A DNA stretch of 64,000 bases, from assembly GCA_947625405.1 (NCBI GenBank), contig CANQOF010000007.1, forward strand, positions 1-64,000, read 5' to 3'. The stretch comes from an uncultured Atopobiaceae bacterium. GTDB lineage: Bacteria > Actinomycetota > Coriobacteriia > Coriobacteriales > Atopobiaceae. The position numbers were made by a program, and so were the translations under genes. Below, in pieces: positions 10,880-28,722 of this stretch. The stretch's first letter is position 1; every line of letters begins with the position of its first letter. The notes beneath the pieces are model-generated. The model was not told where the DNA came from, did not search any database, and saw only the letters and a program-made list of their open reading frames with translations.

Positions 10880-11284
10880 TTAGACGATGGCGACCAACGG
10901 CTCGTGGTAGAGGGAAAGAAGCCGGTCGTGGGTCAGGAACAGGAAGCCACCCGTCTTGGCCTGGGCTATGAGCATCCGGTCGAAGGGATTCTTGTGGATG
11001 CCAGCGGCGGCAGAGAGATCCAAGCGCTCGCAGGCGAGTATGGCCTCTGACGTGAGCGGTTGAATCTGGTAGCCAGCCTCCTGGCATCGACTGAGGAAGC
11101 GCTCGGCGTCGAGCGCAACGCCCCTTGGCTTCGCCGTGTGCTTCATCGCCACTTCCCAGAGGGTCACGTCGCTCACGAAGATGCGGTTCCTCGGATCTTC
11201 GATGATCTCAACGGCGCGCTGGGGCAACTTCGGTGACCCGGCCAGTGCCCAGATGGCGATGTGGGTGTCGAGCAGGACGTTCAC
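10880..11284 (-). CDS. PIN-domain ribonuclease toxin (VapC-type)
   Basis: A 134-residue PIN-domain protein of the VapC toxin class, which cleaves specific RNAs when its antitoxin is lost. The acidic active site is complete: Asp6 in LLDTHIAIW, Glu44 in TLWEVAMK, Asp102 in NPFDRMLIAQA, and Asp120 in LTHD near the C-terminus. Length and motif spacing are typical. Its ATG lies only 2 bp after the stop of the antitoxin gene, so the two are translationally linked. Transcription converges on the structured RNA upstream. The target RNA cannot be read from sequence. Confidence 0.92.
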   Translation of the reverse strand: MNVLLDTHIAIWALAGSPKLPQRAVEIIEDPRNRIFVSDVTLWEVAMKHTAKPRGVALDAERFLSRCQEAGYQIQPLTSEAILACERLDLSAAAGIHKNPFDRMLIAQAKTGGFLFLTHDRLLSLYHEPLVAIV

Positions 11285-11286
11285 GG

Positions 11287-11538
11287 TCAGAGCCCAAACG
11301 CCTCGGCGACGTAGTCGTCGAGCTCGTCGAAGAGCTCGTCGTCGATCTGGAAGGCCGGATCGTCCTTGGCGACGCCGATCCTCCTGCCATCGACTTCAAC
11401 GACCTCGTTGGGAACGATCTTCGCGACAACCCGGTCGCGATTCTTGATCAGGTGCTCGGCGATGTCCCCCCGCTCGATGGACGAGACGATGGCCGAAAGG
11501 TTATCCCGCGTCTTGGCGATGGTCATACTGGACATCAT
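11287..11538 (-). CDS. Phd/YefM-like antitoxin partner of the PIN toxin
   Basis: An 83-residue protein with an N-terminal segment MTIAKTRDNLSAIVSSIERG and IKNRDRVVAKIVP, the layout of Phd/YefM or AbrB-like antitoxins that bind their own promoter through the N-terminal domain. The C-terminal third is acidic (DDPAFQIDDELFDELDD), as expected for a segment that wraps the toxin. The start may be either ATG at the front of MMSSM or the internal Met; a G-rich run precedes. The gene is followed after 2 bp by the toxin. Repeats flanking the -10 region just upstream fit autoregulation. Confidence 0.85.
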   Translation of the reverse strand: MMSSMTIAKTRDNLSAIVSSIERGDIAEHLIKNRDRVVAKIVPNEVVEVDGRRIGVAKDDPAFQIDDELFDELDDYVAEAFGL

Positions 11539-11581: not shown

Positions 11582-11696
11582 GGCGTTCCTTAAACGCAGA
11601 TTCTGGCCAAATGTCTATGACCATGTGATGGTAAAAACCGCTCCTAGCCATTGCCGATACCAGCGCTGAACACGCAGGCCATAGCCTCTAGTCGTC

Positions 11697-11804
11697 TCAC
11701 TGTACGCCGCCGTAGAGGGCGTAGCTGCAGCCCTCGACCCCTCCGAAGACGAAGCGGCCACAGGCGTTGCCACATCCGTGCTGCCTGAGGCGTCGCTCGT
11801 GCAT
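11697..11804 (-). CDS. Orphan RiPP core-like peptide (35 aa frame)
   Basis: The frame ends in NACGRFVFGGVEGCSYALYG, which aligns without gaps to the core of the intact precursor at 14557 (KCGCVAIGAVKGCFCFFYGE) and to the remnant at 14096. Shared positions are C-G near the start, G-A/G-V-K/E-G-C in the middle and an aromatic-Gly at the end. No recognisable leader with a Gly-Gly motif precedes it; the nearest ATG at 11804 would give 35 residues, and the sequence upstream in frame is Arg-rich and unconvincing. It may be a decayed precursor whose leader has been lost, or a leaderless peptide. Which of the two cannot be told from sequence. Confidence 0.45.
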   Translation of the reverse strand: MHERRLRQHGCGNACGRFVFGGVEGCSYALYGGVQ

Positions 11805-11986
11805 GGAGAACCTGCTGAACACCACGCCTATCACGGGCTGGACGATGGCTTCGGGCATACTCGACAAGACGAGGCGCGGCCTCGAGCACGCACCGCTCAC
11901 GCGCCTGCGAGAAGGGCCGCACGAAAACTGGCACCGCACATGGTGCGTGGACACCAGCCACGCACGCTTGAAGCAAGGAGACGGAA

Positions 11987-12229
11987 ATGGAAGAGAAGCT
12001 GATCGAGAAGCTGTCCAGCGCCACCTCCGCGGCAGACATCAAGACCATGGCCGACGAGCACGGCATCGAGATCACCGACGAGCAAGCCGAGGCGCTCTTC
12101 GCGAACCTCCAAGCCGTCATCGCCAAAGAGGGCGAGATCTCCGACGAGGCGCTGATGGGCGTCGCGGGCGGCACGTTTTCCGTGCTCTCCAGCTCGACGG
12201 ACCCGTTCTACGGGAAGAAGGTTTGCTAG
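11987..12229 (+). CDS. RiPP precursor peptide with double-glycine leader
   Basis: An 80-residue protein beginning after AAGGAGACGG. Residues 1-62 form an acidic, helical leader (SAADIKTMADEHGIEITDEQ) ending in EALMGVAGG, the cleavage motif of Nif11-type and type-2 lantipeptide leaders. Residues 63-80 are a short core, TFSVLSSSTDPFYGKKVC, rich in Ser/Thr with a single C-terminal Cys. This core does not resemble the Cys-rich core family nearby, so it may make a different product or use the residues as acceptors differently. The radical SAM maturase gene lies 144 bp downstream on the other strand, tail to tail. No transporter or peptidase gene is adjacent. Confidence 0.78.
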   Translation: MEEKLIEKLSSATSAADIKTMADEHGIEITDEQAEALFANLQAVIAKEGEISDEALMGVAGGTFSVLSSSTDPFYGKKVC

Positions 12230-12333
12230 GAAAGGCGAAGGCTGGCGGTTCGAGCACGACGCCCAAGCACACGCGACATCTTCGCCTCGGGCCGGGGCGT
12301 GGAGGCCAACCCTGCCATGCGCATCACCGAACG

Positions 12334-12370
12334 CGAGGCCGCATCGGGAATGACGCCTGATTCGGCCTCG
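12334..12370. terminator. Long hairpin between precursor and maturase genes
   Basis: CGAGGCCG (12334-12341) pairs with CGGCCTCG (12363-12370), and ATCGGG/CCTGAT extends the stem inward after one mismatch. It sits between converging genes as a terminator would, but no T-run follows on either strand, so termination would be inefficient or factor-assisted. Confidence 0.5.
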
Positions 12371-12373
12371 TCG

Positions 12374-13933
12374 TCATGACGCGATCCGCCGTTCCTTGCG
12401 CGACGCGAGGATTTCCTCGGCTTCGTGGAGCTCGCCGTCCGGCCCGATCGTTTGGATCTGCCGACCGGTCTCGCGCGCGACCTTCGCCATGGCTTCGTCG
12501 ATCAAGTCCTCGCCCTTGATGCCGAAGTAGAGGCAGCGGCTCCGATCGCAGCCATAGAGCGGCGAGACGCCGCATCCCGTCCCATGGGCGAGCGCGACGG
12601 CGATGGCCCGGCAGCCCCCGCCGCAGTCCACGAGGTGCTCGCAGGCGGCGCACGCCCCATTCTCGCGCGCGAGATCGGCGAGCGTGCCCTTGGAGAGCTC
12701 GGCGTACAACCCCTCTTCCATGAGCTCGGCCAAGGGCGCGTCGAAGGCGTTCCCGAAGCTCACGCCCATCTCCTTCAGGCGGCCCGTGAGCGTGTTGCAG
12801 GGGATGACCTCGCCGTCGAAGTTCACGTTAAGCTCGTCTGCCCACTGCCGGCAGAGCGGAAAGCGCATTCCCAGGCGTCGTCTCAAAGGATCGCCCTCGA
12901 AGCGGCTCTTCACGTAGATCCCCTTGCTCGCATCGAGGGTGAGGACCTGCCACACGTAGACGACCATGGGCTCCTCGGTGCGCATCCACCGATCCGCCAG
13001 CTCGAGGGCGACCTCGAGGTACTCCCTCGGCGAGAGGGTCTCGTCAGCGCCGCCGTTTTGGAGCCAGCGGGGCGATTCGCTCGTGCGCGCGACGCGCACC
13101 ATCTCCACGCCCCTGCGCGAGAGCTCGAGGAGGCTCTCGAGGAGCGTGTCGAGGTTGCCCTTCCAGACGTTGAGGTTCACGGAGACGGGGAAGCCCTCCG
13201 CCACCGCGAGCGAGATGCGCTCGAGCGCCTCCCGCTCCGACCCCTCGCGGTTCCGCAGCCAGTCGTGGTGCCCGAGGCCGTCGAAGGAGACGTTGATGGA
13301 GGGAAGTGGATCCATGAACGTCTTCCACTCCTCAAGCAGCTCGCGTGTGAGGAGGGAGGCGTTCGTGTTGATGTGGCCGATCATCAAGCCTCTGGCGTAG
13401 ATCTCGCGCACGAGCCAGGGAAAGTCCGGATGCACGAGGGGCTCCCCGCCGGTGAGGTTCACCTGCTGGAAGCCGCAGGCCTCGATCTCATCGAGCAGCC
13501 GCTCGAGCTGCGCACGATCCATCTCGCCCATGAGCGGTGCGTTGTCGCTCGCCATGAAGCAGTGGCGGCAGTTGAAGTTGCACCTGCCGGTGATGGTGAG
13601 CCGCGCCGTCGACATGAAGCGATTGCGTGCGACCCGGAGGCGCTGCCAGGGGTCGAGGGAGGAGACCTTGTCGCCTTCGCGGGTGCCGGCGCCGACGGGC
13701 TCGATGAGGCCCTTCTCCACCAACGAGCGGAAGGAATCGGAGGAGAGCTGCTCGTGCGTGAGCGGCTTCTCGCCATCGCAGGCGAGCGCCAACCAGAACT
13801 CCCCCGCCGGCAAGGGCGCGGCGCCGAGCATGCCTCGCCGCACGTAGGCGAAAGGTCGATCGGCCCAGCTCCTCAACGCGACGCCCTCCGCGAGGACGTA
13901 GCGGCGTTCGGAAATGGTTTCAGCTTCGCCCAT
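12374..13933 (-). CDS. Radical SAM/SPASM peptide maturase
   Basis: A 519-residue radical S-adenosylmethionine enzyme likely to modify a RiPP precursor. Residues 1-90 resemble a PqqD-like precursor-binding domain (LAEGVALRSWADRPFAYVRR). The radical SAM core carries the 4Fe-4S motif CNFNCRHC with Cys118, Cys122 and Cys125, then NLTGGEPLVHPD as the SAM-binding GGEP motif. A C-terminal SPASM domain has Cys361, 379, 428, 431, 437, 441, 454, 462 and 467, enough for two auxiliary clusters as in sactipeptide and ranthipeptide synthases. The ATG at 13933 follows GAGGGGAG. Precursor genes flank it on the opposite strand. Whether the bond made is thioether or carbon-carbon cannot be read from sequence. 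Confidence 0.88.
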   Translation of the reverse strand: MGEAETISERRYVLAEGVALRSWADRPFAYVRRGMLGAAPLPAGEFWLALACDGEKPLTHEQLSSDSFRSLVEKGLIEPVGAGTREGDKVSSLDPWQRLRVARNRFMSTARLTITGRCNFNCRHCFMASDNAPLMGEMDRAQLERLLDEIEACGFQQVNLTGGEPLVHPDFPWLVREIYARGLMIGHINTNASLLTRELLEEWKTFMDPLPSINVSFDGLGHHDWLRNREGSEREALERISLAVAEGFPVSVNLNVWKGNLDTLLESLLELSRRGVEMVRVARTSESPRWLQNGGADETLSPREYLEVALELADRWMRTEEPMVVYVWQVLTLDASKGIYVKSRFEGDPLRRRLGMRFPLCRQWADELNVNFDGEVIPCNTLTGRLKEMGVSFGNAFDAPLAELMEEGLYAELSKGTLADLARENGACAACEHLVDCGGGCRAIAVALAHGTGCGVSPLYGCDRSRCLYFGIKGEDLIDEAMAKVARETGRQIQTIGPDGELHEAEEILASRKERRIAS

Positions 13934-14095
13934 GGCGCTCCCCTCGCGAACCCTGGATCATGCGGTCGCACTCACAAGAGAACACGAAGTGAAGACCGCA
14001 ATCCCCCGCTCCATGTTTTCGCGGCAATCGCTATGAATGGTTATATCCGATTGCGCCAGCTCACCCTTCCTTCTTAGGCAACTGGTCTTCGGGCA

Positions 14096-14257
14096 TTATG
14101 AGGAACTGCAGGCCATAACCGTCTTGCTCTGACTTGCGCCGCCGAAGATGACACAGCCGCAGCCCTTGACCGCTCCGATGATGGAGCAGTTGCCGCCTTC
14201 GCCCTTATCTTTGCCACCGGCCACGGCCTCGAGCTCCACCTCGGAGAGCTCGAAGCC
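14096..14257 (-). pseudogene. Remnant of a Cys-rich RiPP precursor (leader end plus core)
   Basis: This frame encodes ELSEVELEAVAGG, the end of a Nif11-type leader with its double glycine, then a core containing NCSIIGAVKGCGCVIFGG and ending MACSSS before TAA at 14096-14098. The leader end matches the intact precursor at 14557 (ELSDAELEAVAGG) and the cores share IGAVKGC-x-C. Upstream of about 14257 the frame turns into unrelated sequence (FCPARQ, RRIRF) with no usable start and no ribosome binding site, so most of the leader has been lost by rearrangement or frameshift. It lies upstream of the maturase and reads in the same direction, the arrangement expected for the ancestral operon. Confidence 0.7.
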
Positions 14258-14556
14258 TTGTCGTGCGGGGCAAAACCTGATGCGACGGTAATCGCTCCCT
14301 CGAACGCGCCTTCATCGGGGCCGCGGTGGAGAACTTATATCGGGAAGCAAACACCGCATGAACACGCTGGAACTAGGGCGGAGGGCGAGGGATGCGTTCA
14401 TCGGGTTCGGGCATGCCATGCGACAACCATGCGCGAATGTGAGGTGGGAAAGCACCAATGCGCAATCGTGGATTCCGCATAACGTTCTGAAGAATGTGCG
14501 AACCTCACGGTGCCCATAATGCAATCAGTACGTTCGGTCGATTGAAAGGAAGACCA

Positions 14557-14973
14557 ATGAACGAGAAGGTTCAGAAGTTCTACGAGATCGTCTCCGCCGA
14601 TGACGCGCTCCAGGCCGAGCTCGTCGCCGTGACGGAGGGAGTGGAAGTAGAGGACGTCTCCGAGGAGGAGGCTCGCGCCGCGGTGGCCGAGGCCGTCGCC
14701 GCCTTCGCGGCCGCGCATGACCTCGATCTCACCGCCGAGGACATCCTCGCGAACGACGCGGAGACCGCCGCCGAGGGCGAACTCTCCGATGCGGAGCTCG
14801 AGGCCGTCGCAGGCGGCGCGAAATGCGGGTGCGTCGCCATCGGAGCGGTGAAAGGCTGCTTCTGCTTCTTCTACGGCGAAAGCAAAGGCCTCTCAACGAC
14901 GGAGAGCGAGGGGAAGGTCGGCGACGGCACATGCGGGATCACCGGCGGTACGGCCGACAAGCTCTTCTGGTAA
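14557..14973 (+). CDS. Nif11-leader RiPP precursor with Cys-rich core
   Basis: A 138-residue precursor. Residues 1-87 look like a Nif11-type leader: KFYEIVSADDALQAEL at the start, a long acidic helix, and ELSDAELEAVAGG with the Gly-Gly at 86-87. The 51-residue core has Cys90, Cys92, Cys101, Cys103 and Cys126 within KCGCVAIGAVKGCFCFFYG and DGTCGITGG. The ATG at 14557 follows AAAGGAAG at good spacing. It is the only intact member of the three-member core family in this locus and the best candidate substrate of the radical SAM enzyme at 12374-13933, which lies about 620 bp away on the opposite strand. A terminator follows directly. Confidence 0.85.
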   Translation: MNEKVQKFYEIVSADDALQAELVAVTEGVEVEDVSEEEARAAVAEAVAAFAAAHDLDLTAEDILANDAETAAEGELSDAELEAVAGGAKCGCVAIGAVKGCFCFFYGESKGLSTTESEGKVGDGTCGITGGTADKLFW

Positions 14974-18661: not shown

Positions 18662-19046
18662 TTCGGACTCCTTCCCCTTCTCTCGTTCTCGCCACTTCGC
18701 GCGCGCGACATGGCGTGATGCGCACGCGCTCGCCTCGTTCCAACCAAGGGCCGTCCCGCGCCGGACGCTCCACGACGCACACCGCCGCGCGTGCCGAAAC
18801 CACGCGCCCGGGCTTCACCCCACGTGCCACGCGCACGACGCGCATATGGCGATCGATAAAGCAAAGATCGAGCTCAAAGGCCATGCCGATGGTGTGGACC
18901 GAATGGCAATGCTCGATGAGCACGCTGGGCGCCGTCTCGCGATGCCTTGCCGAGAGGAGCCCCACGAACTTTTCCGCGTGGCGGGTGAGGCGCTGGAGCC
19001 GCATCCTCAGGAAACCGGAAACTTCGAGATAGCACGTCTCAGGCAT
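18651..19046 (-). CDS. DUF192 family protein
   Basis: A 131-residue protein whose middle part matches the DUF192 pattern: a segment ending in HCHSVHTIGMAFELDLCFID, where the family has Hs-x-x-M-x-x-x-x-LD-x-x-FlD, then VARGVKPGRVVSARAAVCVV. The function of DUF192 proteins is not established; many are exported, but no signal peptide is visible here. The ATG at 19046 follows AGGAGGGGAGGG and overlaps the stop of the upstream TadE-like gene by 8 bp. The C-terminus overlaps the start of the zinc-ribbon/FHA gene by 11 bp. It belongs to the 3' end of the Tad operon and may process or accompany pilus components, which is inference from position only. Confidence 0.75.
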   Translation of the reverse strand: MPETCYLEVSGFLRMRLQRLTRHAEKFVGLLSARHRETAPSVLIEHCHSVHTIGMAFELDLCFIDRHMRVVRVARGVKPGRVVSARAAVCVVERPARDGPWLERGERVRITPCRAREVARTREGEGVRNGV

Positions 19047-19509
19047 GGCCCTCCCCTCCTAGGCCGATCGTCGAGGCGTCCACCACGATCGAGCGCGTGT
19101 GCGTGACGAGCACCGGGAGCGCGAAGGACGCTCCCGCGATCGAGAAGCTCGAGGGATGGGGCCGATACCCCATGGAACAGGTGAAGCGCACTCGCGACGG
19201 AGAGAGGGAGAAGATCCCCTCCTGAAGCGGGTCCAGGTGCTCGACGGACACCTCGATCTCAAGGCTTGGATCATCCATGGCGGCTTCAATGGCGCTCTTC
19301 ACCTGAGTCGCCGCCGAAGAGGCGTCCTGCTCCCCCGAAGGAGAAACGCCCTGGGCAAGCGCCACGTCCGTCGCCACGCGATCGAACTGCGCGCAGAGGT
19401 TTGCGAACCACGCGCCATTCATGGCCACCAACGCACAGACAAGGATGACGGGCACCATCACCGCCATCTCGGCGACCATCTGGCCACGCTCTTCAAGAAG
19501 CACTCTCAT
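19039..19509 (-). CDS. TadE-like pseudopilin
   Basis: A 156-residue protein with a short leader ending in EERG, a prepilin-peptidase-type site G/QMVAE with Glu at +5, and one hydrophobic helix (MAVMVPVILVCALVAMNG). The remainder is a soluble domain with weakly conserved beta strands. This is the layout of TadE/TadF minor pilins. The ATG overlaps the stop of the TadG-like gene as ATGA, so translation is coupled. Minor pseudopilins prime or tip the Tad pilus. The identity is from architecture and context rather than strong residue conservation. Confidence 0.75.
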   Translation of the reverse strand: MRVLLEERGQMVAEMAVMVPVILVCALVAMNGAWFANLCAQFDRVATDVALAQGVSPSGEQDASSAATQVKSAIEAAMDDPSLEIEVSVEHLDPLQEGIFSLSPSRVRFTCSMGYRPHPSSFSIAGASFALPVLVTHTRSIVVDASTIGLGGEGHA

Positions 19510-21614
19510 AGAAGCCCCAACTGGCCGAGGCTAATCGTGAGGGGGATGCGAATGGAGGTCCCCGGGATGGGGAGTTCCGCGACGGTGAACTTCACATCGC
19601 GAATGTCGCTCGCGAACTCTCGCCCGAGCGCGGAGAGGAGCTCCCCCACGTCTCCGTCTGAGGGCATGGCCTGGAGATAGCGGCGAATATCCGCGGCCTG
19701 CGTAGAACCGTCCTTGTCAAGCACGTCTTGCGAGTTGCAAAGCACGGGCTTCTTGAGACGCATGTCCGCGGGCTGGAAACCGAGCGCCTCCACGATGCCC
19801 GTGAGCGTATCCGAGAGCCAATCGGCAACCGAGCCGAGTCCGATGGAATCGAGGCCGTCGAAGAGGCTCCGCGCGGCGCCGGAGATGCCCTCCGCCGCCG
19901 AGCCGTAGCCCACAAGAAGCTGGCCCCACATGCTCGTGATGCCTTGGAGGATGCCCTCGATCCCCCCGTCTTCTCCCTGCGAGACCGAATCGAAGAAGCG
20001 GGCGAGTACGTTGTTTTCAGCCGTCGCCTCGTCGGGCGCGAGGGTGGCGGCGGAGAGCGCGGCACCCGGAGGCAGCGTCGCCTCGCCGGTGAAGACTCCG
20101 GCAAGCGATGTGGGACTCTGCGCCTCCCCATGTACGACGACGGAGACGCAACCCCACGCTCCGGGTGGGCAGAGTTTCGGGCGTGGCACGGAGAGCGCCC
20201 TCAGCGCCTCGTCGAAGGCGCTCGCACCCTCGTCTCCCGCCGCGCGCATTTCCTCCTCGGCGGCTTTGAGCTCGGCTTTCGCCGCCGTCCATTCGTGAGA
20301 TGCCTCGACGACGATGCGCCAGTAGTGCTCGAAGCCGTTCGAGATGTTCGTGGAGGCGGAGGCCACGCGCCCCATCTCCGACGTGGAGAAATGGCAGACG
20401 TCGCACTCGCGAACCGCGCCCGAATCCATCTGGGCCAGCGTCGCGCTTCCCGCGCTCGCCCCCTTCGCTCCCGGGCACGCCGCGTAGGCGTGGATCGTCC
20501 TTCCACCCGCCTCCTGCGTGCACGGCCAGGCGACCTCGGTGTAGAGGGACGTTTGCCTCGTCTCCTGCGTGTTATGGGCGAGCGAGGGCAGGTCCATCGA
20601 CACCGAACCATCGGCGCCCTGCAGGTAGGAGCCACTCTTGACCTCCTCCAGGGCATACGCGTAGTAGGCCTTGCGCATGGCAGAGTTCGCCTGCTCGTCC
20701 ACGGCACTCGATGCCGGCGCCTCCTGCGCGTAGCGTTTGGCGTAATAGGCGCGCGCACGCGAGAGCGCCACCCCGAAGTTCCAGCCCTCGGGGTGCGCGT
20801 AATAGGGGTTTTCGGCGTCGGAGAGCCCCGCGAGGGTGGACGCACGGGAGCGCATGCAGAGCGGATCGTCCACGCAGTCGGCGCGCCACCCCTTCTCCCG
20901 CGCTTGGTCGAGGGCGTCCTGGGCGGCCTTCGCCTTATCGGAGGCCTCGCCCATCTCCTCCGCCGCGTCCTCGAGATCATCGGGCCGCACTTCGTCGGCG
21001 AGCCCGAAATCTGACTTGCCCTCCGCGGGGAAGGGGATCGCCACCCCCGCGTAGCCCACGGCTCCGGTGTTATTCGCCTCAACCGTCACGAACGAATCAG
21101 CCGCGATGAGCGCGGGGAGGCTGCCCTCGAGCTTCTTGAGGTTTTCCGCGGCGGAGGTTGCGAAATCCTTACGCGCGTCCATGATCTTTCCGCCCGCGTC
21201 CACCACGCGAAGTCCCACGGGGGCCATGCCCGGAACGGCGCAGACGACGAGGCCCGCTCCCATCACGAAGAGCCCGGCGAGGCCCAAGGTGAGCACGCAC
21301 GCATCGCTGACCTCCGCCACGAGGGTGTAGGCCTTCACCACCTGCGAACCCGAAAGCGCCGCGGAATCCGCGACCGCCTGCACGTCGGCGGACCGAGAGC
21401 CCACCCACTGCACCTGGGCAAGCGTGAGCACGAGCGCGAGCGAGACCATGAGCGCCGTTGCCATCGCGACCGTGGTGTAGCCCTCCTCCTCGTCGAGGAA
21501 GAGGGAAAGGCCGAGGTGGCGGGGCCTGGAAGGACGAAGCGCTCGAAACCTCTCGAGTCGTGCGCGCGTGGCACGCCCTGCCTTCTCAGCTGTCCCACAT
21601 GGAAACCCAGTCAT
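19506..21614 (-). CDS. TadG-like large pilus-locus protein
   Basis: A 702-residue protein. An N-terminal segment of about 45 residues (EEEGYTTVAMATALMVSLA) has a pilin-like leader site followed by a membrane helix, though Glu at +5 is replaced by Val. Next come SADVQAVADSAALSGSQVV, typical of TadG/TadE-like N-termini, a second hydrophobic span near residue 110, and a long extracytoplasmic part with coiled-coil-like Ala/Glu/Lys stretches and several Cys pairs such as CDVCHF. The ATG at 21614 follows GGAGGGAGG and overlaps the preceding gene by 29 bp. TadG proteins are thought to anchor or terminate the pilus. Sequence outside the N-terminus is poorly conserved, so the label rests mainly on layout and position. 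Confidence 0.7.
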   Translation of the reverse strand: MTGFPCGTAEKAGRATRARLERFRALRPSRPRHLGLSLFLDEEEGYTTVAMATALMVSLALVLTLAQVQWVGSRSADVQAVADSAALSGSQVVKAYTLVAEVSDACVLTLGLAGLFVMGAGLVVCAVPGMAPVGLRVVDAGGKIMDARKDFATSAAENLKKLEGSLPALIAADSFVTVEANNTGAVGYAGVAIPFPAEGKSDFGLADEVRPDDLEDAAEEMGEASDKAKAAQDALDQAREKGWRADCVDDPLCMRSRASTLAGLSDAENPYYAHPEGWNFGVALSRARAYYAKRYAQEAPASSAVDEQANSAMRKAYYAYALEEVKSGSYLQGADGSVSMDLPSLAHNTQETRQTSLYTEVAWPCTQEAGGRTIHAYAACPGAKGASAGSATLAQMDSGAVRECDVCHFSTSEMGRVASASTNISNGFEHYWRIVVEASHEWTAAKAELKAAEEEMRAAGDEGASAFDEALRALSVPRPKLCPPGAWGCVSVVVHGEAQSPTSLAGVFTGEATLPPGAALSAATLAPDEATAENNVLARFFDSVSQGEDGGIEGILQGITSMWGQLLVGYGSAAEGISGAARSLFDGLDSIGLGSVADWLSDTLTGIVEALGFQPADMRLKKPVLCNSQDVLDKDGSTQAADIRRYLQAMPSDGDVGELLSALGREFASDIRDVKFTVAELPIPGTSIRIPLTISLGQLGLL

Positions 21615-22188
21615 CGTAGCCTCCCTCCAGCCACTCGGGCCTGAGCACTTCGGTCGAGGTCACGGAGAGTGCGACGCCCTCCTCGCCCGCCACGCCGAGG
21701 GCGCGTGCGACAAACGAGAAGAGGGGAAGCAGCGGCACGTGCCCCTCGATGGTCACGGCAACCTCGGCATCCCCCTCGGCCCCCGAGGTTGCGATCGTCC
21801 AGTCGTCCTCGCCGCCCCCGTGAAACGGCGTGGTCTCGGGTACCGCCGAAAGACGGCGCAAGGCAAAGGCCCTGAGCTGCGCGTCGGTGATGTCGCCTCG
21901 TTTCGTGACGAGGATTCGGCAGAGCTCTGAGGCCGTGGCGGCCATCACGGAACGGGTGTAAAGGATGCATATCGGTTCGAGGAGGATCGCAAACACCACG
22001 AGGAGCGAGGGCAGGAGGAGCCCCGCCTCCACGCTTGATTGGCCACGCGCCTCCCCGCACGCATCGCGAAGATCCACTGCGTCCCGCTCGACATGCCCGC
22101 GAGGTCGCAAGCCACGGACGGCCATTCGCGATCGTTCGCGAAAACGCGGGTGCGCAAGCCCTTTCCGTCTTTTCGGGGGAAATCGCAT
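21586..22188 (-). CDS. TadE-like pseudopilin
   Basis: A 200-residue protein with an unusually long basic N-terminus (RFPPKRRKGLAHPRFRER), then EARG/QSSVEAG, a prepilin-peptidase site with Glu at +5, and a single hydrophobic helix LLLPSLLVVFAILLEPICIL. The rest is an extracytoplasmic domain. This is the TadE signature arrangement. The ATG at 22188 begins 9 bp after the stop of the preceding gene and has GAGGATG upstream; an internal Met at residue 22 is a possible alternative start. The gene overlaps the TadG-like gene downstream. Probable minor pilin of the Tad pilus. Confidence 0.75.
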   Translation of the reverse strand: MRFPPKRRKGLAHPRFRERSRMAVRGLRPRGHVERDAVDLRDACGEARGQSSVEAGLLLPSLLVVFAILLEPICILYTRSVMAATASELCRILVTKRGDITDAQLRAFALRRLSAVPETTPFHGGGEDDWTIATSGAEGDAEVAVTIEGHVPLLPLFSFVARALGVAGEEGVALSVTSTEVLRPEWLEGGYDDWVSMWDS

Positions 22189-22197
22189 CGCGCATCC

Positions 22198-22428
22198 TCA
22201 GTAGAGGGCCACGTCCTGGAGCGAGCCGACGAACGACTCACCCGCGCTATGGGAGGCGGCTTCCACGGCCTTGCCCACCACCACGCCCTCGCTCACCGCT
22301 CGCGCGATCGCCCCAAGCGCCATGACCATCGCGAGGAACGCGCCGAGGATGATCGCGTATTCCACCGTCGATTGTCCGAGGCTCTCGGCGGCGAACCTAG
22401 CCAAGCGCCTCTTCCCACGCCTTCGCAT
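22198..22428 (-). CDS. Small Flp/TadE-type pilin-like protein
   Basis: A 76-residue protein with a short basic leader (MRRRGKRRLARF), the processing site LG/QSTVEYA with Glu at +5 and Tyr at +6, and a hydrophobic helix IILGAFLAMVMALGAIA. The Glu-Tyr pair is typical of Flp pilins, and the size fits. It could be a second pilin or a minor component. The start overlaps the end of the preceding gene by 32 bp; GGTGAGG lies upstream. The mature form would be about 56 residues, similar to Flp1 proteins. Confidence 0.75.
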   Translation of the reverse strand: MRRRGKRRLARFAAESLGQSTVEYAIILGAFLAMVMALGAIARAVSEGVVVGKAVEAASHSAGESFVGSLQDVALY

Positions 22429-22945
22429 CGAGCCTCACCACCTCCACAAGCGAGTTGCCACTCTCCTCCTCACGCACGCAACACACGTCGACCCATCCGG
22501 CGTCCGCCGTCACGCATCCCCATGCCCTTCCGAGCACATCGAGGTAGCTCGCCTCGAAGAGGCTCGCTCCCGCATCGCGATAGCTCTCGAGCACCCATGC
22601 GGCCACGCGCGGCACATCTCCCTCGCGCTCGAAGGCGTGCGCCTCGCCGAGCTCCCCCATCACCCGCTCGATGGCCTGCGATGCTTGGAGGGCGACATCG
22701 ACTTCCAGCTCGCCTTCGGCGCCCGCGCCAAGCTCGCCAAGATCGAGAAGCACGTCATGGCCCGAGCTCGAGACGTTTGAGGTGGGCACGGCTTCAGACT
22801 CATCGTGGGGATTGGAGAAGCCCAGCTCATCCACCTCCGCCCCATCGAGGCCGGCGGTGCCATCCGAATGGGCCATTGCCCACGTGAGGAGCCCGAGCGC
22901 GGCGAAGACGCCCACCACCACCAACCACCTCCCACGCGCTCGCAT
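22397..22945 (-). CDS. Tad-locus protein of unknown function with one membrane anchor
   Basis: A 182-residue protein with an N-terminal membrane span (WLVVVGVFAALGLLTWAMA) and an acidic extracytoplasmic domain that holds three Cys residues (C at WGCVTAD and the pair VCCVREE). It lacks the G-x-x-x-x-E prepilin site seen in its neighbours, so it is probably a simple membrane-anchored or signal-anchored protein. Its ATG overlaps the pilin stop as TGATG, and its end overlaps the next pilin-like gene by 32 bp, so it belongs to the operon. I do not recognise a family. Confidence 0.65.
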   Translation of the reverse strand: MRARGRWLVVVGVFAALGLLTWAMAHSDGTAGLDGAEVDELGFSNPHDESEAVPTSNVSSSGHDVLLDLGELGAGAEGELEVDVALQASQAIERVMGELGEAHAFEREGDVPRVAAWVLESYRDAGASLFEASYLDVLGRAWGCVTADAGWVDVCCVREEESGNSLVEVVRLDAKAWEEALG

Positions 22946-23292
22946 CAGAGCGAGTTGATGCCGTCGGCGATGGTGGTCCAGAGCTCCTGCACCTTGTCGC
23001 GGAATATGAGGATGGCCATGATGGCGATCACCACGAGCACGCCGACCAAGATCGCGTACTCCGTCGTGCCCTGCCCTGATTCCTCCGCGAGAAACGCGCG
23101 CCGCCCAGGAGCGGGGCTCGTGCGCGTCTCGACGCTCGCATGGCCCAGAAGCGCTGACGCGCCCTTCGTGCGAAAGGGGATCACCTCCGCTCCCTCCGGC
23201 GGAACGAGACGCGCGTGGGAGGAGGGGGAGACGAGGTCGCGTCTCGCGGTTCGCTCTTCCTCGAAGGGGATGACTTGGGCTCTTGCGTGCAT
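22945..23292 (-). CDS. Flp-type major pilin candidate with very long leader
   Basis: A 115-residue protein. The last 42 residues are a classic Flp pilin: processing site ESG/QGTTEYA with Gly73 at -1, Glu78 at +5 and Tyr at +6, a hydrophobic helix ILVGVLVVIAIMAILIF, and a short polar tail. The first 73 residues are an exceptionally long, charged leader, while Flp leaders are commonly 10-30 residues. The leader holds a repeated motif, AQVIPF at 5-10 and AEVIPF at 35-40. The ATG at 23292 is chosen because AAAGGAAC lies 6 bp upstream; a GTG at 23307 overlaps that site. A 37-bp gap before it makes it the first pilin gene after tadC. Confidence 0.82.
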   Translation of the reverse strand: MHARAQVIPFEEERTARRDLVSPSSHARLVPPEGAEVIPFRTKGASALLGHASVETRTSPAPGRRAFLAEESGQGTTEYAILVGVLVVIAIMAILIFRDKVQELWTTIADGINSL

Positions 23293-23329
23293 GGCAGTTC
23301 CTTTCACGTTTCGTTTGCCGATCTGGCGT

Positions 23330-23989
23330 CTAGCCCACGCTCATAAGCGCCGAGGCCACAAGCGGGCCAAGCACGGCGAGGAGCATGGCGGGCACGACGA
23401 GCACTCCAAGGGGAACGAGCATCTTCACGGGCACCTTCTCGATGGCCTCCTCCACATCGCGCTTGTGGTCGGCGCGAATGGCCGTGGCTTGCCTCACGAG
23501 GGTGTCGGTGAGGGGAACGCCGAAGGCAAGCGATTCGGAGACCGCCGAGGCGAAGCGCTCGAGCGAGGAGGCGCGTACGCGCTTCGCCATGGAGGAAAGC
23601 GCCTCCGCGCGAGAGGCCACTCCCATGGACCACGAGAGCCGCGCTTGGTCCATGAGCTCGGAGAGGGGCGTGTGGTATCGCTCGCAGTAGAGGGAAAGCG
23701 CGGCGTCGAACGAGAGACCCGCGGAAAGCCCGAGCGTGAGGATATCGAGCATCTCGGGCACCTCGGCGAGCCGGGAAATCGCCACTCCCTCTCGCATCTC
23801 GCGGTTCCTCACCTCGCGCACGAGGGAGAGCCGCTCGAGGGCGGCGAATATCCCCTTTCGAGGTGCCATCTTCGAGGGCGCGAGCCCGCTACGCGCCGCT
23901 CCCTTGCCCCTCGCATCCGATCGCCCCTGCAAAAGCCAGGCGGCGAGCGCCACGGAGACCGCGACCATCGCACAGAGGAGCACGCTCAT
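23330..23989 (-). CDS. tadC: TadC-like pilus assembly membrane protein
   Basis: A 219-residue inner-membrane protein of the GspF/TadC family. An N-terminal helix (MSVLLCAMVAVSVALAAWLL) is followed by a cytoplasmic region with LAEVPEMLDILTLGLSAGLS, the conserved element of TadB/TadC proteins, then FASAVSESLAFGVPLTDTL and a C-terminal hydrophobic hairpin (LVPLGVLVVPAMLLAVLG). The ATG at 23989 has GGAGGTGAGG upstream and overlaps the tadB stop as ATGA. TadB and TadC form the platform on which the ATPase acts. It is shorter than many TadC proteins, but the core segments are present. Confidence 0.85.
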   Translation of the reverse strand: MSVLLCAMVAVSVALAAWLLQGRSDARGKGAARSGLAPSKMAPRKGIFAALERLSLVREVRNREMREGVAISRLAEVPEMLDILTLGLSAGLSFDAALSLYCERYHTPLSELMDQARLSWSMGVASRAEALSSMAKRVRASSLERFASAVSESLAFGVPLTDTLVRQATAIRADHKRDVEEAIEKVPVKMLVPLGVLVVPAMLLAVLGPLVASALMSVG

Positions 23990-24909
23990 GGCCTCACCTC
24001 CGCCATGATTTTTCGCATCGCGAAGAGCGCCACAACGTCGAGTGCGCACGCGATGAGGAGGCAGACAAGGCCCACAGGTGTCGAGAGGCCTTGGCGATAG
24101 TCGGGGGTGAGCATGGCGAGAAACGCCACCAACGCGGCAGGAAGGATCATCACGAGATGCGCCGAGAGCCTCACCTGCGCCGTCTTGGTGGAAAGCTCGG
24201 CCTTGAGCGACTGCTGCTCCTCCACGAGCGCCGCGGAGCGCCGAAGGAGTCCATCCAGAGGAGCCCCGGTGCGCTGCGAAACCGTGAGCGCGCACGCGAG
24301 AAGCGACACTCCCGGGGCATCAAGCTCGCGTTCGAGCTCGGTGAGCGCGTCGGCGATCGACATGCCGCACTCCACCGCAAGGCTCGCGCGGAGAAACGCG
24401 CGTCCCGCGTCGCCCTTCGCGTGCGAACCCACGTAGCCGATGGCTTGGGTGAGCGTCTTACCCGCGCCGAGGCTTGAGGAGAGCGAACGGAGGAGATCGG
24501 GCATGGCTGTGGCGATCGCCTCCTTGCGCGCGCGCTCGAGCGAGGCCGCGAAGACGGGGACCATCGCCACGCAGGCTATGAGCGCCACGGCGACGCCCAG
24601 AACCGAGCCCACGAGCCACGCGAAGAGGAGGCTCACGACGAGCATCGCCACGACCATCATCCCCGCGGCGCAACGGCGCCCGAGGTAGAGCGCTCGAGCA
24701 GCCGCGGCCTCGCGAATGGCGTCCTCGCAGACGAGCCATGGTGCGCACGCTGCGATTTGGGAGACCAAGGGTGCCGAGCCAAGCCATGTGCAGGCATCGA
24801 GGATGCGACGGTGCAAAAGGATCCTCGAAGCCTGGGAACTTCCCCTCGCGGGAGCCAAGCAGAGGCCCGCTGAGGTCATGGCGAAGAGAGTGCAAAGCGC
24901 GCACATCAT
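23986..24909 (-). CDS. tadB: TadB-like pilus assembly membrane protein
   Basis: A 307-residue membrane protein of the TadB type. It has two N-terminal hydrophobic segments, a long pair around residues 85-120 (MMVVAMLVVSLLFAWLVG), the cytoplasmic element AMPDLLRSLSSSLGAGKTLT with ECGMSIADALTELERELD, and a C-terminal hydrophobic pair (LVMILPAALVAFLAML). The start at ATG 24909 overlaps the tadA stop as ATGA, with GGGAGGTGG as the ribosome binding site; longer starts at 24924 overlap further. It acts with TadC and TadA in assembling the pilus. Confidence 0.85.
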   Translation of the reverse strand: MMCALCTLFAMTSAGLCLAPARGSSQASRILLHRRILDACTWLGSAPLVSQIAACAPWLVCEDAIREAAAARALYLGRRCAAGMMVVAMLVVSLLFAWLVGSVLGVAVALIACVAMVPVFAASLERARKEAIATAMPDLLRSLSSSLGAGKTLTQAIGYVGSHAKGDAGRAFLRASLAVECGMSIADALTELERELDAPGVSLLACALTVSQRTGAPLDGLLRRSAALVEEQQSLKAELSTKTAQVRLSAHLVMILPAALVAFLAMLTPDYRQGLSTPVGLVCLLIACALDVVALFAMRKIMAEVRP

Positions 24910-26231
24910 GCGGCCACCTCCCATGCCCGAGCCTCTGGCGCTCGAGGGAAGACGAGGGAGAGGCGCGTGCCGCCCTCGCGTTCAAAGGGCGGCTCGGCCA
25001 CGAGCTCCCAGTGGTCGCGATCCTCGTCGTAGGTGACGATCGGCGAAAGCGCGACGCTGCCGTCGGGCGCCCGCGAGACGGAGGAGGCGGACGTCACCCG
25101 CCGCTCGCCCGAGGCCATGCGCTTGCTCATCACGATGAGATCGAGCGCGGTGGCGATCTGCTCTTCGAGGATCTGCGCGGGGAGGTCCATGCCGAAGCGC
25201 GCCATGAGCACGAGGCGAAGGATCGCCTCCTCCTCCGTGCCCGCGTGAAGCGTCGTCATGGAGCCGTCGTGGCCGGTATTCATGGCCTGGAGCATGTCGA
25301 CGCACTCGGCGCCGCGCACCTCCCCCACGATGATGCGATCGGGCCGCATGCGCAGGGCGTTCGTCACGAGGTCGCGGATGGTCACCTCTCCGCGCCCCTC
25401 CACGGACGCGTCCCTCGCCTCGAGACGCACCACGTGGGGGTGCTCGTCGAAAGCGAGCTCCGCGGAATCCTCGATCGTCACGATGCGCTCGGCATGGCTG
25501 ATCTCCGCAGAGAGGGCGTTCAGGAGCGTCGTCTTGCCCGAGCCCGTGCCACCCGCGACGGCGATGTCCTGGCGGCACATCACCGCGCGCGAGAGGAGGC
25601 GCGCGTACCACTCGGGAAGGCTTCCCATGGCCACGAGGCTCTCGAGCCGGTGGATGCGTCCCGTGAACTTTCGGATCGTCACCACGGGACCGTCGATGGC
25701 GATCGGCGCGATCACCGCGTTCACGCGATCTCCGTTGGCGAGGCGCGCGTTCACGATGGGGCTCGATTCGTCGAGGCGACGACCGAGGGGCGCGAGGATG
25801 CGATCCACGACGAGGAGGATCTGCTCGGTGCTCTCGAAGACTCGCTCAGCTTCGAGTAGCCTCCCCTCGCGCTCGAAGAAGAGCGAGCTCGTGCCGTTCA
25901 CCATCACCTCCGTGACGCTCGGATCATCGAGGAGCGGCTGGATGGGTCCCAATCCCACGACCTCGTCGAGCACCTCGGAGATGAGCCGGCTTTGCTCCTC
26001 GCGCCGGAGGATGTGGTAGTCGTTTTCGTTGAGGAGCGCCTCGAGCGTGACGGCGAGCTCATCTCGCGAGCGCTCGGCGCTCTCCGAGCTCACGACGCCC
26101 GCAATGGCCTTGAGCCCGAGCCGCTCCACGAGATCGCGTTTGAGCTGCTCACGGAGCGGGCCCAGGCTTGGGCGAAGCTCCGCCTCATCCACCTCGACCT
26201 GCGAGGCCATGACCCTCTCGAGCAGGCTCAT
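24906..26231 (-). CDS. tadA: TadA/CpaF pilus assembly ATPase
   Basis: A 441-residue type II/IV secretion-family ATPase. The N-terminal domain includes LGPIQPLLDDPSVTEVMVNG, a hallmark of CpaF/TadA proteins. Walker A is GGTGSGKT at residues 227-234, an Asp box follows (IVTIEDSAEL), a His-box/Walker B region is MRPDRIIVGEVRGAE, and DGSMTTLHAG closes the core. The ATG overlaps the tadZ stop as ATGA. It powers assembly, and perhaps retraction, of the Tad pilus from the cytoplasmic side of the membrane. Confidence 0.95.
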   Translation of the reverse strand: MSLLERVMASQVEVDEAELRPSLGPLREQLKRDLVERLGLKAIAGVVSSESAERSRDELAVTLEALLNENDYHILRREEQSRLISEVLDEVVGLGPIQPLLDDPSVTEVMVNGTSSLFFEREGRLLEAERVFESTEQILLVVDRILAPLGRRLDESSPIVNARLANGDRVNAVIAPIAIDGPVVTIRKFTGRIHRLESLVAMGSLPEWYARLLSRAVMCRQDIAVAGGTGSGKTTLLNALSAEISHAERIVTIEDSAELAFDEHPHVVRLEARDASVEGRGEVTIRDLVTNALRMRPDRIIVGEVRGAECVDMLQAMNTGHDGSMTTLHAGTEEEAILRLVLMARFGMDLPAQILEEQIATALDLIVMSKRMASGERRVTSASSVSRAPDGSVALSPIVTYDEDRDHWELVAEPPFEREGGTRLSLVFPRAPEARAWEVAA

Positions 26232-27907
26232 GATGCGAGCGCCTTGAAGAAGGGGAAGACCTCGCCGCGCTTGCCGCGGGACTTCTCGCCCGCGGCCTTC
26301 CGCGCGCGCTCATCGTCGGGAAGGATCCCCAGCTCGGAGAGGATGAGCGCGAGATGGCGCGCGACGCTCTCGGAAAAATCGTTCGGGAGGTCCACGAGCT
26401 CCGTGGCATGCCCCGCGCTCATGAGCTCGCCCACCTCGATGCCCCCTTCGAGGATGGAGAGCTGGCGCGCCGTCTCGAAGCCCTTGTCCACGCGATTGAT
26501 GAAGCCCTCGTCGCGATGTCGCGGGTCGCAGCGATTGATGAGGCGGCAGATCCGCGTGCGCGCCACGCCGAGGCGCTGGGCGAGGAGCCCGGCGCGGGAG
26601 AGGGTGCCGATGGCGCCCGCACGCTCGTCCGAACACACGAGCAGGCGCGAGGCCATCTGCGTGGCCTGCGCCACGGCATCGCCCCACGAGGTGCCCCCAT
26701 CCACCACCACGAGGTCGTACGTGGCGGAGAGCTCATCGAGGATCTCCGCCGTGCGCGGGGCGACCGTTTCCGCGTACTCCGGCTTGGCGCAGGGTCCGAA
26801 GAGCGTGAGTCGCTCGCCCACCTGCCGCCCCACGCGCATGAGCTCGCGTTCGAGGGTGGCGTCGGCAAGGGGCGTGAGATCGGCGGGGCCGTCGAGCCCG
26901 AAGTAGCCGAAGAGATTTCCGAAGGCGAGATCGAGGTCGACGAGCGCGACCTCCATGCCCCACGAGGCGGCGGTGGCGGCCATGAGCGCGGCGATGGCGC
27001 TCTTCCCCACGCCCCCTCGCCCGCTCACGAGCACAAGGCGAGGTGAATCCTTTCCCAAGCGCGCGTGGGCCACGGGAGACGGGAGACGCGTGGAGCGCTC
27101 TCCTTGAGAGAACGGGAGATACGCGGTGTCTCCCGCTACGTCGTAGCGACCATCCCTCGCCTCCTGGGCGCGGGATGAGAAGGGCTTGTGGCGAAGCCTC
27201 GCCTGCGTGGAGGACACGTTTCCGAGGCCCGGAGCTTGGTGGATGTGGGCTGCGTCGGGAGTGCGTTTGGAGTGTGAAGTGCTCCGGGCGTCTCGCGCGC
27301 CACCAAACTCCGGTTCCTCGAGATCGTCCCCCCACGCGGCGAAGGCCCCATGCGCCTCGGCCTCCTCGAGCGTGGGCAGTGCGCGAAGGAAGAGGCGCTG
27401 ATGCGCCACCTCATCAACCTCAAGTGGCTCCTCGCGCGCGAGCCCGCGATCCGTCGGCGCGGGAAGCGGATGCGATGCGGAGGGAAGCGGCGCGCCTGAA
27501 GGCGCCACCTCGAGCGCCGTTTCCGGCCCCGGAGACATGTGGATCGGCGATCGCGTAATTCCGAGCGCCTCGAGCACCTCGCCCGGTTCCACCACGCGCG
27601 TGATCATCGCGTGCGCCGCCCGGGAGCGAAGGGAGCCCGATGGACGCTCCGCCACGAGCCACACGCCTCTCGCGTGGCCGTCTCGCGCGATCGCCGCGGC
27701 CACGTTCACCGGCTCGATGGGCAGGGTGGTCCCCACCAGCACGCGCCGAAGGCCCCGGGGCTCCGAGAGGAGATCCTGGCGAAGTAGCCAAGGATCTTGA
27801 TAGGCCTCCACCTCGAGGCCCTCTATCTGCCTAAGCTCGCGCGCCCACACCTCATCGCCGGAGCTTATGAGGGAGATGGGGCACTGCGGCTCGCGACCGA
27901 CGATCAT
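26228..27907 (-). CDS. tadZ: TadZ/CpaE-like ParA-family localisation protein
   Basis: A 559-residue protein. The C-terminal half is a MinD/ParA-type ATPase with a deviant Walker A, SGRGGVGKSAI at residues 295-305, a Walker A-prime region VDLDLAFGNLFGYFGLDG, and YDLVVVDGGTS as switch/Walker B. The N-terminal 120 residues resemble the atypical receiver domain of CpaE/TadZ, and a long Pro/Ser/Arg-rich linker of about 160 residues joins them. TadZ proteins set the polar or subcellular position of the Tad machine. The ATG overlaps the cpaB stop as ATGA, with GAGGAG upstream. The linker is longer than I would expect for the family. Confidence 0.88.
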   Translation of the reverse strand: MIVGREPQCPISLISSGDEVWARELRQIEGLEVEAYQDPWLLRQDLLSEPRGLRRVLVGTTLPIEPVNVAAAIARDGHARGVWLVAERPSGSLRSRAAHAMITRVVEPGEVLEALGITRSPIHMSPGPETALEVAPSGAPLPSASHPLPAPTDRGLAREEPLEVDEVAHQRLFLRALPTLEEAEAHGAFAAWGDDLEEPEFGGARDARSTSHSKRTPDAAHIHQAPGLGNVSSTQARLRHKPFSSRAQEARDGRYDVAGDTAYLPFSQGERSTRLPSPVAHARLGKDSPRLVLVSGRGGVGKSAIAALMAATAASWGMEVALVDLDLAFGNLFGYFGLDGPADLTPLADATLERELMRVGRQVGERLTLFGPCAKPEYAETVAPRTAEILDELSATYDLVVVDGGTSWGDAVAQATQMASRLLVCSDERAGAIGTLSRAGLLAQRLGVARTRICRLINRCDPRHRDEGFINRVDKGFETARQLSILEGGIEVGELMSAGHATELVDLPNDFSESVARHLALILSELGILPDDERARKAAGEKSRGKRGEVFPFFKALAS

Positions 27908-28722
27908 GGCTGCTCCTCGAAGATTGGCTCGGATGAGAGGTCGTCGGGGCCGATGGCCTCGGATGTGGCGTCTTCCACGAAGATCTCGCCGATCTCGGCG
28001 TTGCCCTCCTCGGCGGGAACGTTCGAGGGCGCCACGGGATCGGCCGCGGGGGCATCACCCTCCGCCGCGTCGGCCGCCACGTCCTGCTCCACCTGGTAGA
28101 GCCCATCGGCGGGTTGCACGAGACGCAGGCTTCCGTCGGTGGCCGCCGCGATGAAGGCGGCCACGTCGTCGATCGGCACGGCGACGGTGATCGCCGATCC
28201 CGTGGCTCCCGAGCCCTCGCTCGTGCCGATCACCGTGAGATCCGTGGAGACCGTGCGGGTCTCGCCATCGAGCACGCGATAGCCCACGAGGGAGACGCCG
28301 AGCGCCACGTCCGAGCTCACGCCGGTCTTGTCGCCCAGCGAAACCGACATGGCGACGGTGCCCTCGGGTATGGCGAGCGTGGCCGAATCTTCGCGAACGG
28401 CGGTGTGGGTGATGGGGGTCCCCGCGCTCACAGGCGAGGTGAGCGTGAGGCCGAGGGAATCCTCAAGGGAGGTGAGCGAGCCCTCGGGCACGAGCTCGGC
28501 GACCCAATCCCGCTCCTCGCAGGTGAGCGAATCGACCTTCTCCCCCGCCTCGAGATCGCGCGCGGCCACGACGATCGCCACGAGCTCGCCGCCATAGCGC
28601 TCGAGCGCCTCGGCGCGATCGGTCTCCGCCTCCGCGCGCACCTGCTCGCCATAGCCCAGACAGGCCATGAGCGCGAGCACGCCGAAGGCGGCGGAGAGTA
28701 TGAGGCGAAAGCGCTTGGACAT
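27904..28722 (-). CDS. cpaB: CpaB/RcpC-like SAF-domain pilus protein
   Basis: A 272-residue protein with an N-terminal membrane anchor (FRLILSAAFGVLALMACLG) and a SAF-type region: VAIVVAARDLEAGEKVDS then VSAGTPITHTAV, the two conserved strands of CpaB/FlgA-type domains. The C-terminal tail is acidic and Ala/Pro-rich. In diderms CpaB works with the secretin; no secretin gene is present here, in line with a monoderm envelope, so it presumably interacts with the wall or pilus directly. It is the first gene of the coupled Tad chain. The ATG at 28722 is chosen because GAGGGAG lies just upstream. Confidence 0.85.
   Translation of the reverse strand: MSKRFRLILSAAFGVLALMACLGYGEQVRAEAETDRAEALERYGGELVAIVVAARDLEAGEKVDSLTCEERDWVAELVPEGSLTSLEDSLGLTLTSPVSAGTPITHTAVREDSATLAIPEGTVAMSVSLGDKTGVSSDVALGVSLVGYRVLDGETRTVSTDLTVIGTSEGSGATGSAITVAVPIDDVAAFIAAATDGSLRLVQPADGLYQVEQDVAADAAEGDAPAADPVAPSNVPAEEGNAEIGEIFVEDATSEAIGPDDLSSEPIFEEQP

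What the first reader, a model, noticed from the sequence alone, without database searches (positions are those of the whole stretch)
11697..14973. RiPP locus with three related Cys-rich cores, only one intact, around a radical SAM/SPASM enzyme
Cores at 11697-11804 (minus), 14096-14257 (minus) and 14557-14973 (plus) align without gaps around I/F-G-A/G-V-K/E-G-C-x-C/Y, but only the last has a full Nif11-type leader. The second keeps just the end of the leader and the first keeps none. The family seems to have been duplicated, inverted and partly lost around its maturase. The core pattern is not one I know from named sactipeptides or ranthipeptides.
Basis: partly seen in the sequence, partly recalled or inferred. 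Interest (0 to 1): 0.75.

Follow-up and report, generated by a model that had tools for sequence, protein, structure and literature searches.

The report
Scattered gut-bacterial peptide precursors, one regulon

Summary
The sequence features are largely real, but the locus was misread. The radical SAM/SPASM enzyme (12374-13933, -) and the 138-residue precursor (14557-14973, +) are intact. "Core 2" is a leaderless fragment of the same family (profile E=1.6e-9). "Core 1" is a decayed fragment, detectable only as DNA (11674-11755); most of the rest of its reading is a promoter element.

It is conserved beside this enzyme in two sister genomes, is absent where the enzyme is absent, and carries the leader type found beside related enzymes. 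It is the enzyme's likeliest substrate.

The 138-residue precursor is one of about 12 intact copies dispersed over this genome. Eleven share a C-x-C-(8)-(C/S)-x-C core. CxC cores elsewhere sit beside a different enzyme clade, represented here by two tandem enzymes directly behind another copy.

Ten of the 12 copies, the 80-residue gene and probably the only C39 exporter carry one operator: two 9-bp repeats 12 bp apart, with a -10 box 53-54 nt further on. This geometry is LytTR-like, and an operator-bearing LytTR gene is present. The system works like prochlorosins, with radical SAM enzymes replacing LanM. Product chemistry and pairings are untested.

The parts
11674..11755 (-). relic 'core 1': decayed fragment of a CxC-family precursor (3' part of core plus tail), frame broken
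   Evidence: DNA similarity to core 2: 76% over 83 bp, E 2e-7; score 63 vs null maximum 40; no significant protein-profile hit
   Evidence: score 16.3 here, 23.1 and 20.9 at the same place in G001 and G003; promoter-like hexamer 53 nt away on the + side in all three
11856..11861 (+). putative -10 box (CATACT) of the 80-aa gene
   Evidence: 53 nt from the operator edge in three genomes
11987..12229 (+).
   Evidence: TIGR03798 3.7e-6, below cut-off; 88% and 78% identical beside the enzyme in G001 and G003; clade-A-partner leader profile 38 bits vs 16 bits for the clade-B one
12374..13933 (-). radical SAM/SPASM peptide maturase (519 aa), clade A
   Evidence: Pfam; CX3CX2C and auxiliary-cluster cysteines conserved; AlphaFold model best matches SuiB, SkfB, CteB and TigE
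14099..14257 (-). relic 'core 2': leaderless fragment of a CxC-family precursor (FELSEVELEAVAGG-KDKGEGGNCSIIGAVKGCGCVIFGGASQSKTVMACSSS)
   Evidence: core profile E=1.6e-9; 79.6% DNA identity to an intact member in G004
14431..14460 (+). two-box operator GCGCGAATG-N12-GCACCAATG
   Evidence: score 23.8; gap of exactly 12 in 40 of 46 hits in genus sequence
14515..14520 (+). -10 box CATAAT, 54 nt behind the operator
   Evidence: 29 of 47 operators have a 5/6 TATAAT match at offset 53 or 54
14557..14973 (+). intact 138-aa member of the dispersed CxC precursor family (leader to GG at 86-87; core AKCGCVAIGAVKGCFCFFYGESKGL, then C126)
   Evidence: dN/dS about 0.08-0.22 against orthologues

Best explanation
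Two RiPP units overlap here. (1) The enzyme at 12374-13933 is a radical SAM/SPASM maturase that most likely binds the leader of the adjacent 80-aa peptide (11987-12229) and makes a cross-link in its short core, which ends in a single Cys. (2) The 138-aa precursor and the two relics belong to a genus-wide family of dispersed precursors. Most intact members have a core built on CxC-x3-G-x2-K-G-CxC-x3-G plus a later Cys. Inferred pathway: a LytTR-type regulator binds two 9-bp repeats upstream of each gene and induces the family together. The tandem clade-B enzymes C9a/C9b, encoded behind one member, modify the others in trans. The genome's single C39/NHLM exporter cuts after the double glycine and secretes the products. 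Shown by sequence: the family, shared operator, exporter, enzyme repertoire and relics. Inferred: pairings, thioether or C-C cross-links, LytTR binding, secretion. Copies arise and die by gene turnover, which leaves leaderless cores and orphan operators.
For: Family: 13 hits in own genome on 7 contigs, 4-14 in sister genomes except the divergent G002; members listed; 28 distinct cores with invariant C3, C5, G9, G13, C16, G20. No YcaO, no LanC-like, one C39 peptidase, in an operon with NHLM ABC1, ABC2 and HlyD-like genes. Pairing: tree clades A and B fully supported. CxC cores adjoin 6 of 7 loci in the C9-containing clade-B group and 0 of 9 clade-A loci (Fisher 0.0009; loci chosen by hand). Leader profiles separate 80-aa (A 38 / B 16 bits) from 138-aa (A 9 / B 33). 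The 80-aa gene occurs in G000, G001 and G003, exactly the genomes with a near-identical enzyme, while CxC precursors also occur in G004 and G005 without it. Regulon: 40 operator hits above 20 at gap 12 vs 0-2 at every other gap from 5 to 20; reversed control 1; upstream of 10 of 12 own members, the 94-aa precursor, the AIM24-LytTR operon and C9a in G003; LytTR proteins.
Against: In G002 the orthologue of this enzyme (58% identical) sits beside precursors with B-type leaders, so leader type does not fully fix the pairing. G001 has about 14 CxC precursors but no C9a/C9b was found in its 91% complete draft. The 80-aa gene is weakly constrained (dN/dS 0.45-0.72). The exporter operator (score 19.8) lacks a clear -10 box at the usual offset. 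Operators lie about 30 bp, not about 10 bp, from the inferred -35 position, unlike published LytTR systems (PMC6193735). The Fisher test counts one per locus and ignores relatedness.
Confidence: 0.62

Rival explanations
1. The window enzyme itself (clade A) matures the CxC precursors, alone or together with C9a/C9b, and the 80-aa peptide is an additional substrate or a bystander.
For: Distance: 138-aa gene 0.6 kb away, with two relics flanking the enzyme; two intact CxC genes 2-3 kb from the enzyme in G001. G001 has the enzyme and about 14 CxC genes but no C9a/C9b detected. In G002 the orthologous enzyme adjoins B-type leaders.
Against: G004 and G005 carry CxC families without this enzyme (88% and 69% complete). 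No CxC-repeat core beside any clade-A enzyme outside the genus. In this genome a CxC gene forms an apparent operon with C9a/C9b.
Confidence: 0.25
2. The CxC peptides are not enzyme-modified at all: they are secreted metal-binding or disulfide-linked bacteriocin-like peptides with a double-glycine leader.
For: CxC pairs suit metal ligation; a C39 exporter is present; most copies lie far from any maturase gene.
Against: Long Nif11-type leaders are typical of modified peptides (PMC2887384); CxC genes adjoin clade-B enzymes in six independent loci.
Confidence: 0.1
3. The whole locus is a decaying remnant without function.
For: Two truncated cores, one with indels.
Against: Intact enzyme motifs, purifying selection on the 138-aa gene and the enzyme, conserved operators and -10 boxes.
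Confidence: 0.03

Closest known systems
Prochlorosins / synechococsins (ProcA/SyncA with ProcM/SyncM)
   Same: Nif11-type leaders, large paralogous families scattered over the genome as single genes, one or few enzymes acting in trans (PMC10783134)
   Different: LanM is replaced by radical SAM/SPASM enzymes (no LanC-like domain); cores are conserved around CxC rather than hypervariable; common two-box operator; gut Actinomycetota host
N11P families with NHLM export (Haft, Basu and Mitchell 2010, PMC2887384)
   Same: Nif11-type precursors with the TIGR03794/03796/03797 exporter; paralogue expansion
   Different: That work paired them with TOMM or lanthionine enzymes and never mentions radical SAM enzymes; no regulon described in the passages read
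Sactipeptide / ranthipeptide maturases (SkfB, CteB, SuiB relatives)
   Same: SPASM architecture; SkfB is the best PDB sequence hit and SuiB the best fold hit
   Different: About 14-16% identity in fold alignments; CxC-x8-CxC cores do not match the spacing of the characterised sactipeptides I know of (own knowledge); bond type unknown
LytTR-controlled bacteriocin regulons (sil, S. mutans HdrR/BrsR)
   Same: Two 9-bp direct repeats with a 12-bp spacer upstream of peptide genes; regulator operon carries the same operator (PMC2766830, PMC6193735)
   Different: Box sequence RCRCGAAWG differs; repeats lie about two helical turns further from the promoter; regulator has a non-receiver N-terminus without a Pfam match

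Membership tests
Nif11-like leader RiPP precursor (TIGR03798 / PF07862) | profile match above curated cut-off | tested here: not met
   138-aa: 22.8 vs 32.3 and 19.8 vs 23.8 bits; 80-aa: 27.1 vs 32.3. Two paralogues in this genome pass PF07862 and partners of related enzymes pass TIGR03798
Nif11-like leader RiPP precursor (TIGR03798 / PF07862) | ELS..EL..V.GG cleavage motif before the core | tested here: met
   GELSDAELEAVAGG / GEISDEALMGVAGG
radical SAM/SPASM peptide maturase | CX3CX2C cluster and SPASM domain | tested here: met
radical SAM/SPASM peptide maturase | N-terminal leader-binding (RRE) fold | tested here: inconclusive
   model shows strands 12-32 then helices 43-73 and aligns nearly end to end with SuiB; the domain was not compared on its own
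named NCBIfam maturase families (StsB, nif11-class 3, ACGX, WgkB and others) | equivalog cut-off | tested here: not met
   best 80.5 bits vs cut-off 625
sactipeptide / ranthipeptide | Cys thioether to a carbon of an acceptor residue | not testable with these tools
   needs mass spectrometry or NMR
prochlorosin | LanM-type synthetase | tested here: not met
   no LANC_like domain in the genome
TOMM / azole RiPP | YcaO cyclodehydratase | tested here: not met
   no YcaO in the genome
NHLM export system | TIGR03796 and TIGR03797 above cut-off | tested here: met
   908.4 vs 853.3 and 728.5 vs 709.4 bits; the HlyD part is short and below cut-off (44.6 vs 156.2)
LytTR regulon | 9-bp direct repeats, 12-bp spacer | tested here: met
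LytTR regulon | repeats about 10 bp upstream of -35 | tested here: not met
   53-54 nt to the -10, so about 30 bp to a -35 with a 17-bp spacer
LytTR regulon | binding by the LytTR protein | not testable with these tools
   needs EMSA or footprinting

The most novel reading that the evidence does not exclude
A radical-SAM counterpart of the prochlorosins in a gut actinomycete: about a dozen dispersed precursors with a repeated CxC-x3-G-x2-K core, co-induced through one LytTR-type operator, matured in trans by one or two clade-B SPASM enzymes that make a cross-link pattern not yet described, and exported by a single NHLM transporter.
Probability: 0.45. Interest if true: 0.78.

Novelty: new variant of a known kind. 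Interest (0 to 1): 0.6.

Why it matters
Dispersed, trans-matured RiPP families are known mainly for lanthipeptides of marine cyanobacteria, and their function is unknown. A radical-SAM version in gut bacteria, with a recognisable shared operator, would give a regulated, testable case: one regulator and a set of related peptides whose products can be read by mass spectrometry. It also shows that enzyme and precursor should be paired by clade and leader type rather than by nearest distance. The operator motif gives a way to find precursor genes that gene finders miss.

Tried and rejected
Core 1 as a short peptide gene: rejected, no protein-profile support, broken frame, first part is an operator. 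Lanthipeptide or azole maturation: rejected for lack of LanC-like and YcaO in the genome. Third operator box at the 21-bp period: seen in a few promoters, but the mean score does not support it. Whole-genome pattern search for the operator: the degenerate pattern matched 1,314 places, mostly in coding-like sequence, so it was used only to pick up the C18 site; the position-weight scan of held sequence was used instead. Literature: no paper in the held library was found that combines LytTR control with a radical-SAM RiPP family or describes this CxC core; absence there is weak evidence. Fold of the precursors was not attempted, being uninformative for unmodified linear peptides.
Full report
CONTEXT. 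The window lies on contig 7 of a 1.72-Mb draft genome (98.5% complete). Same-genus genomes held: G001-G005.

THE OBSERVATION. The enzyme and the 138-aa ORF are real. Core 2 is found by a profile built from intact cores elsewhere at E=1.6e-9 in a six-frame search of the window, with nothing else below E~1 except the intact gene. Core 1 is not found by that profile. As DNA, 11674-11755 is clearly related to core 2 (score 63 against a maximum of 40 for about 1,950 random segments), but the match crosses the stop codon with indels, so it is a dead fragment. Cores 1 and 2 are on the same strand, so 'inverted' applies only to the third.

THE MISSED GENE. At 11987-12229(+) is an 80-aa ORF with a Nif11-type leader (TIGR03798 3.7e-6) and core TFSVLSSSTDPFYGKKVC. 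The same gene stands in the same place beside the enzyme in G001 (88%) and G003 (78%), where the surrounding chromosome is otherwise different. It is absent from G004 and G005, which also lack the enzyme, although those drafts are 88% and 69% complete.

THE CxC FAMILY. The 138-aa protein hits 13 places in its own genome and 4-14 in each of four sister genomes; in divergent G002 only leader-level matches occur. Gene calling gives 12 intact members here: C7, C9, C13 (five), C6 (two), C1, C16, C8. Eleven have CxC-x8-(C/S)xC. Among 28 distinct cores, C3, C5, G9, G13, C16 and G20 are invariant. The core reads as two 11-residue units, CxC-x3-G-x2-K-G and CxC-x3-G-x2-K, followed by one more Cys. The window gene is under purifying selection (dN 0.02-0.06, dS 0.23-0.36 among orthologues). 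Leaderless cores (here and G005:C32) and operators without genes show turnover.

WHICH ENZYME. The genome has four RiPP-type radical SAM enzymes of this kind: the window one, C9a and C9b in tandem, and one on C4 beside a 94-aa precursor. A tree of 46 enzymes separates clade A (window) from clade B (C9a/b, C4 and others) with full support. Midpoint rooting and long branches limit deeper reading. Neighbouring precursors were read. CxC cores occur beside C9a/b, G052_C9, Eisenbergiella B, G360_C96, G121 and G200_C33, all clade B. Clade-A neighbours carry other cores. Leader profiles built only from loci outside the genus assign the 80-aa leader to clade A (38 vs 16 bits) and the 138-aa leader to clade B (33 vs 9 bits). 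Exceptions: in G002 the window-enzyme orthologue adjoins B-type leaders, and G001 has CxC genes without C9a/b in its draft. These keep the rival pairing at about 0.25.

THE REGULON. Upstream of ten of the 12 own members, and of most members in the sister genomes, lies RCRCGAAWG-N12-RCRCGAAWG, usually ending 96-98 nt before the start codon, with an ATAAT-type box 53-54 nt behind it. In 909 kb of genus sequence (both strands counted) there are 40 hits above score 20 at a gap of 12 and none to two at any other gap from 5 to 20; the reversed control gives one. The matrix was trained on these promoters, so the score alone is circular; the exact gap and the position of the -10 box are the independent evidence, and the sites at non-family genes were not used in training. 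Those sites stand upstream of the 94-aa precursor in four genomes, the AIM24-LytTR operon in G000 and G003, C9a in G003, a 51-aa double-glycine peptide, and the exporter operon (weaker, no clear -10). Before the 80-aa gene the operator is flipped, but CATACT stands at the same 53-nt distance in all three genomes. Nine-bp repeats with a 12-bp spacer are the LytTR consensus (PMC2766830, PMC6193735). The genome has two LytTR proteins; the C18 one is directly behind AIM24 on the same strand and that gene pair carries this operator. Binding is inferred.

EXPORT AND CHEMISTRY. One C39 peptidase exists in the genome, in an NHLM ABC1/ABC2 operon above cut-off. No YcaO or LanC-like gene was found. The modelled window enzyme (pLDDT 85) resembles SuiB, SkfB, CteB and TigE, so a Cys- or carbon-centred cross-link is expected; which one is unknown.

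COMPARISON. Works like: prochlorosins (dispersed Nif11-leader precursors, enzyme in trans; PMC10783134) and N11P/NHLM families (PMC2887384). Not a member of the former: LanM absent. No curated radical-SAM equivalog cut-off is met. I found no description of this combination in the held library, which lacks most subscription journals.

VERDICT. A real and more interesting system than described, but with the enzyme probably assigned to the wrong substrate. New variant of a known kind.

Noticed in passing
G000:C6, L099:8600-11700: Several 52-96-aa ORFs ending in a double-glycine motif followed by short, mostly Cys-free, aromatic and proline-rich tails, between CxC genes; similar ORFs in G001, G002 and G004. 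Possibly another peptide family.
   Followed up: no
G000:C4, L039:8241-10093: 94-aa Nif11-type precursor next to a radical SAM gene: the precursor, with the same operator, was seen in G000, G001, G002 and G005; the enzyme in G000-G003 and, cut by a contig end, in G005.
   Followed up: partly
G002 (L011, L123-L127): The divergent sister genome has its own dispersed precursor expansion with a related leader but quite different, variable Cys-containing cores.
   Followed up: partly
L233:6458-8590 and L112:51-1731: LytTR regulator with an N-terminal part without a Pfam match, directly behind an AIM24-family gene that is preceded by the same operator.
   Followed up: partly
window 10880-11538: PIN-domain protein and small partner (VapBC-like); other VapBC-like pairs flank the enzyme in G001 and G003, suggesting that the locus attracts or travels with toxin-antitoxin genes.
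   Followed up: no
window 11764-13950 versus L036 and L035: The 80-aa gene plus enzyme segment sits between tRNA-Phe/Pta and an Ldh gene here, but beside IMPACT-family and PepC-like genes in G001 and G003, so it seems to have moved as a unit.
   Followed up: partly
L102:4733-6310 (G000:C8): A 525-aa radical SAM/SPASM protein about 3 kb from a CxC precursor, conserved with it in G005; role unknown.
   Followed up: no
window 19039-28722: A run of minus-strand genes that look like a Tad/Flp-type pilus locus (judged by eye, no profile run).
   Followed up: no
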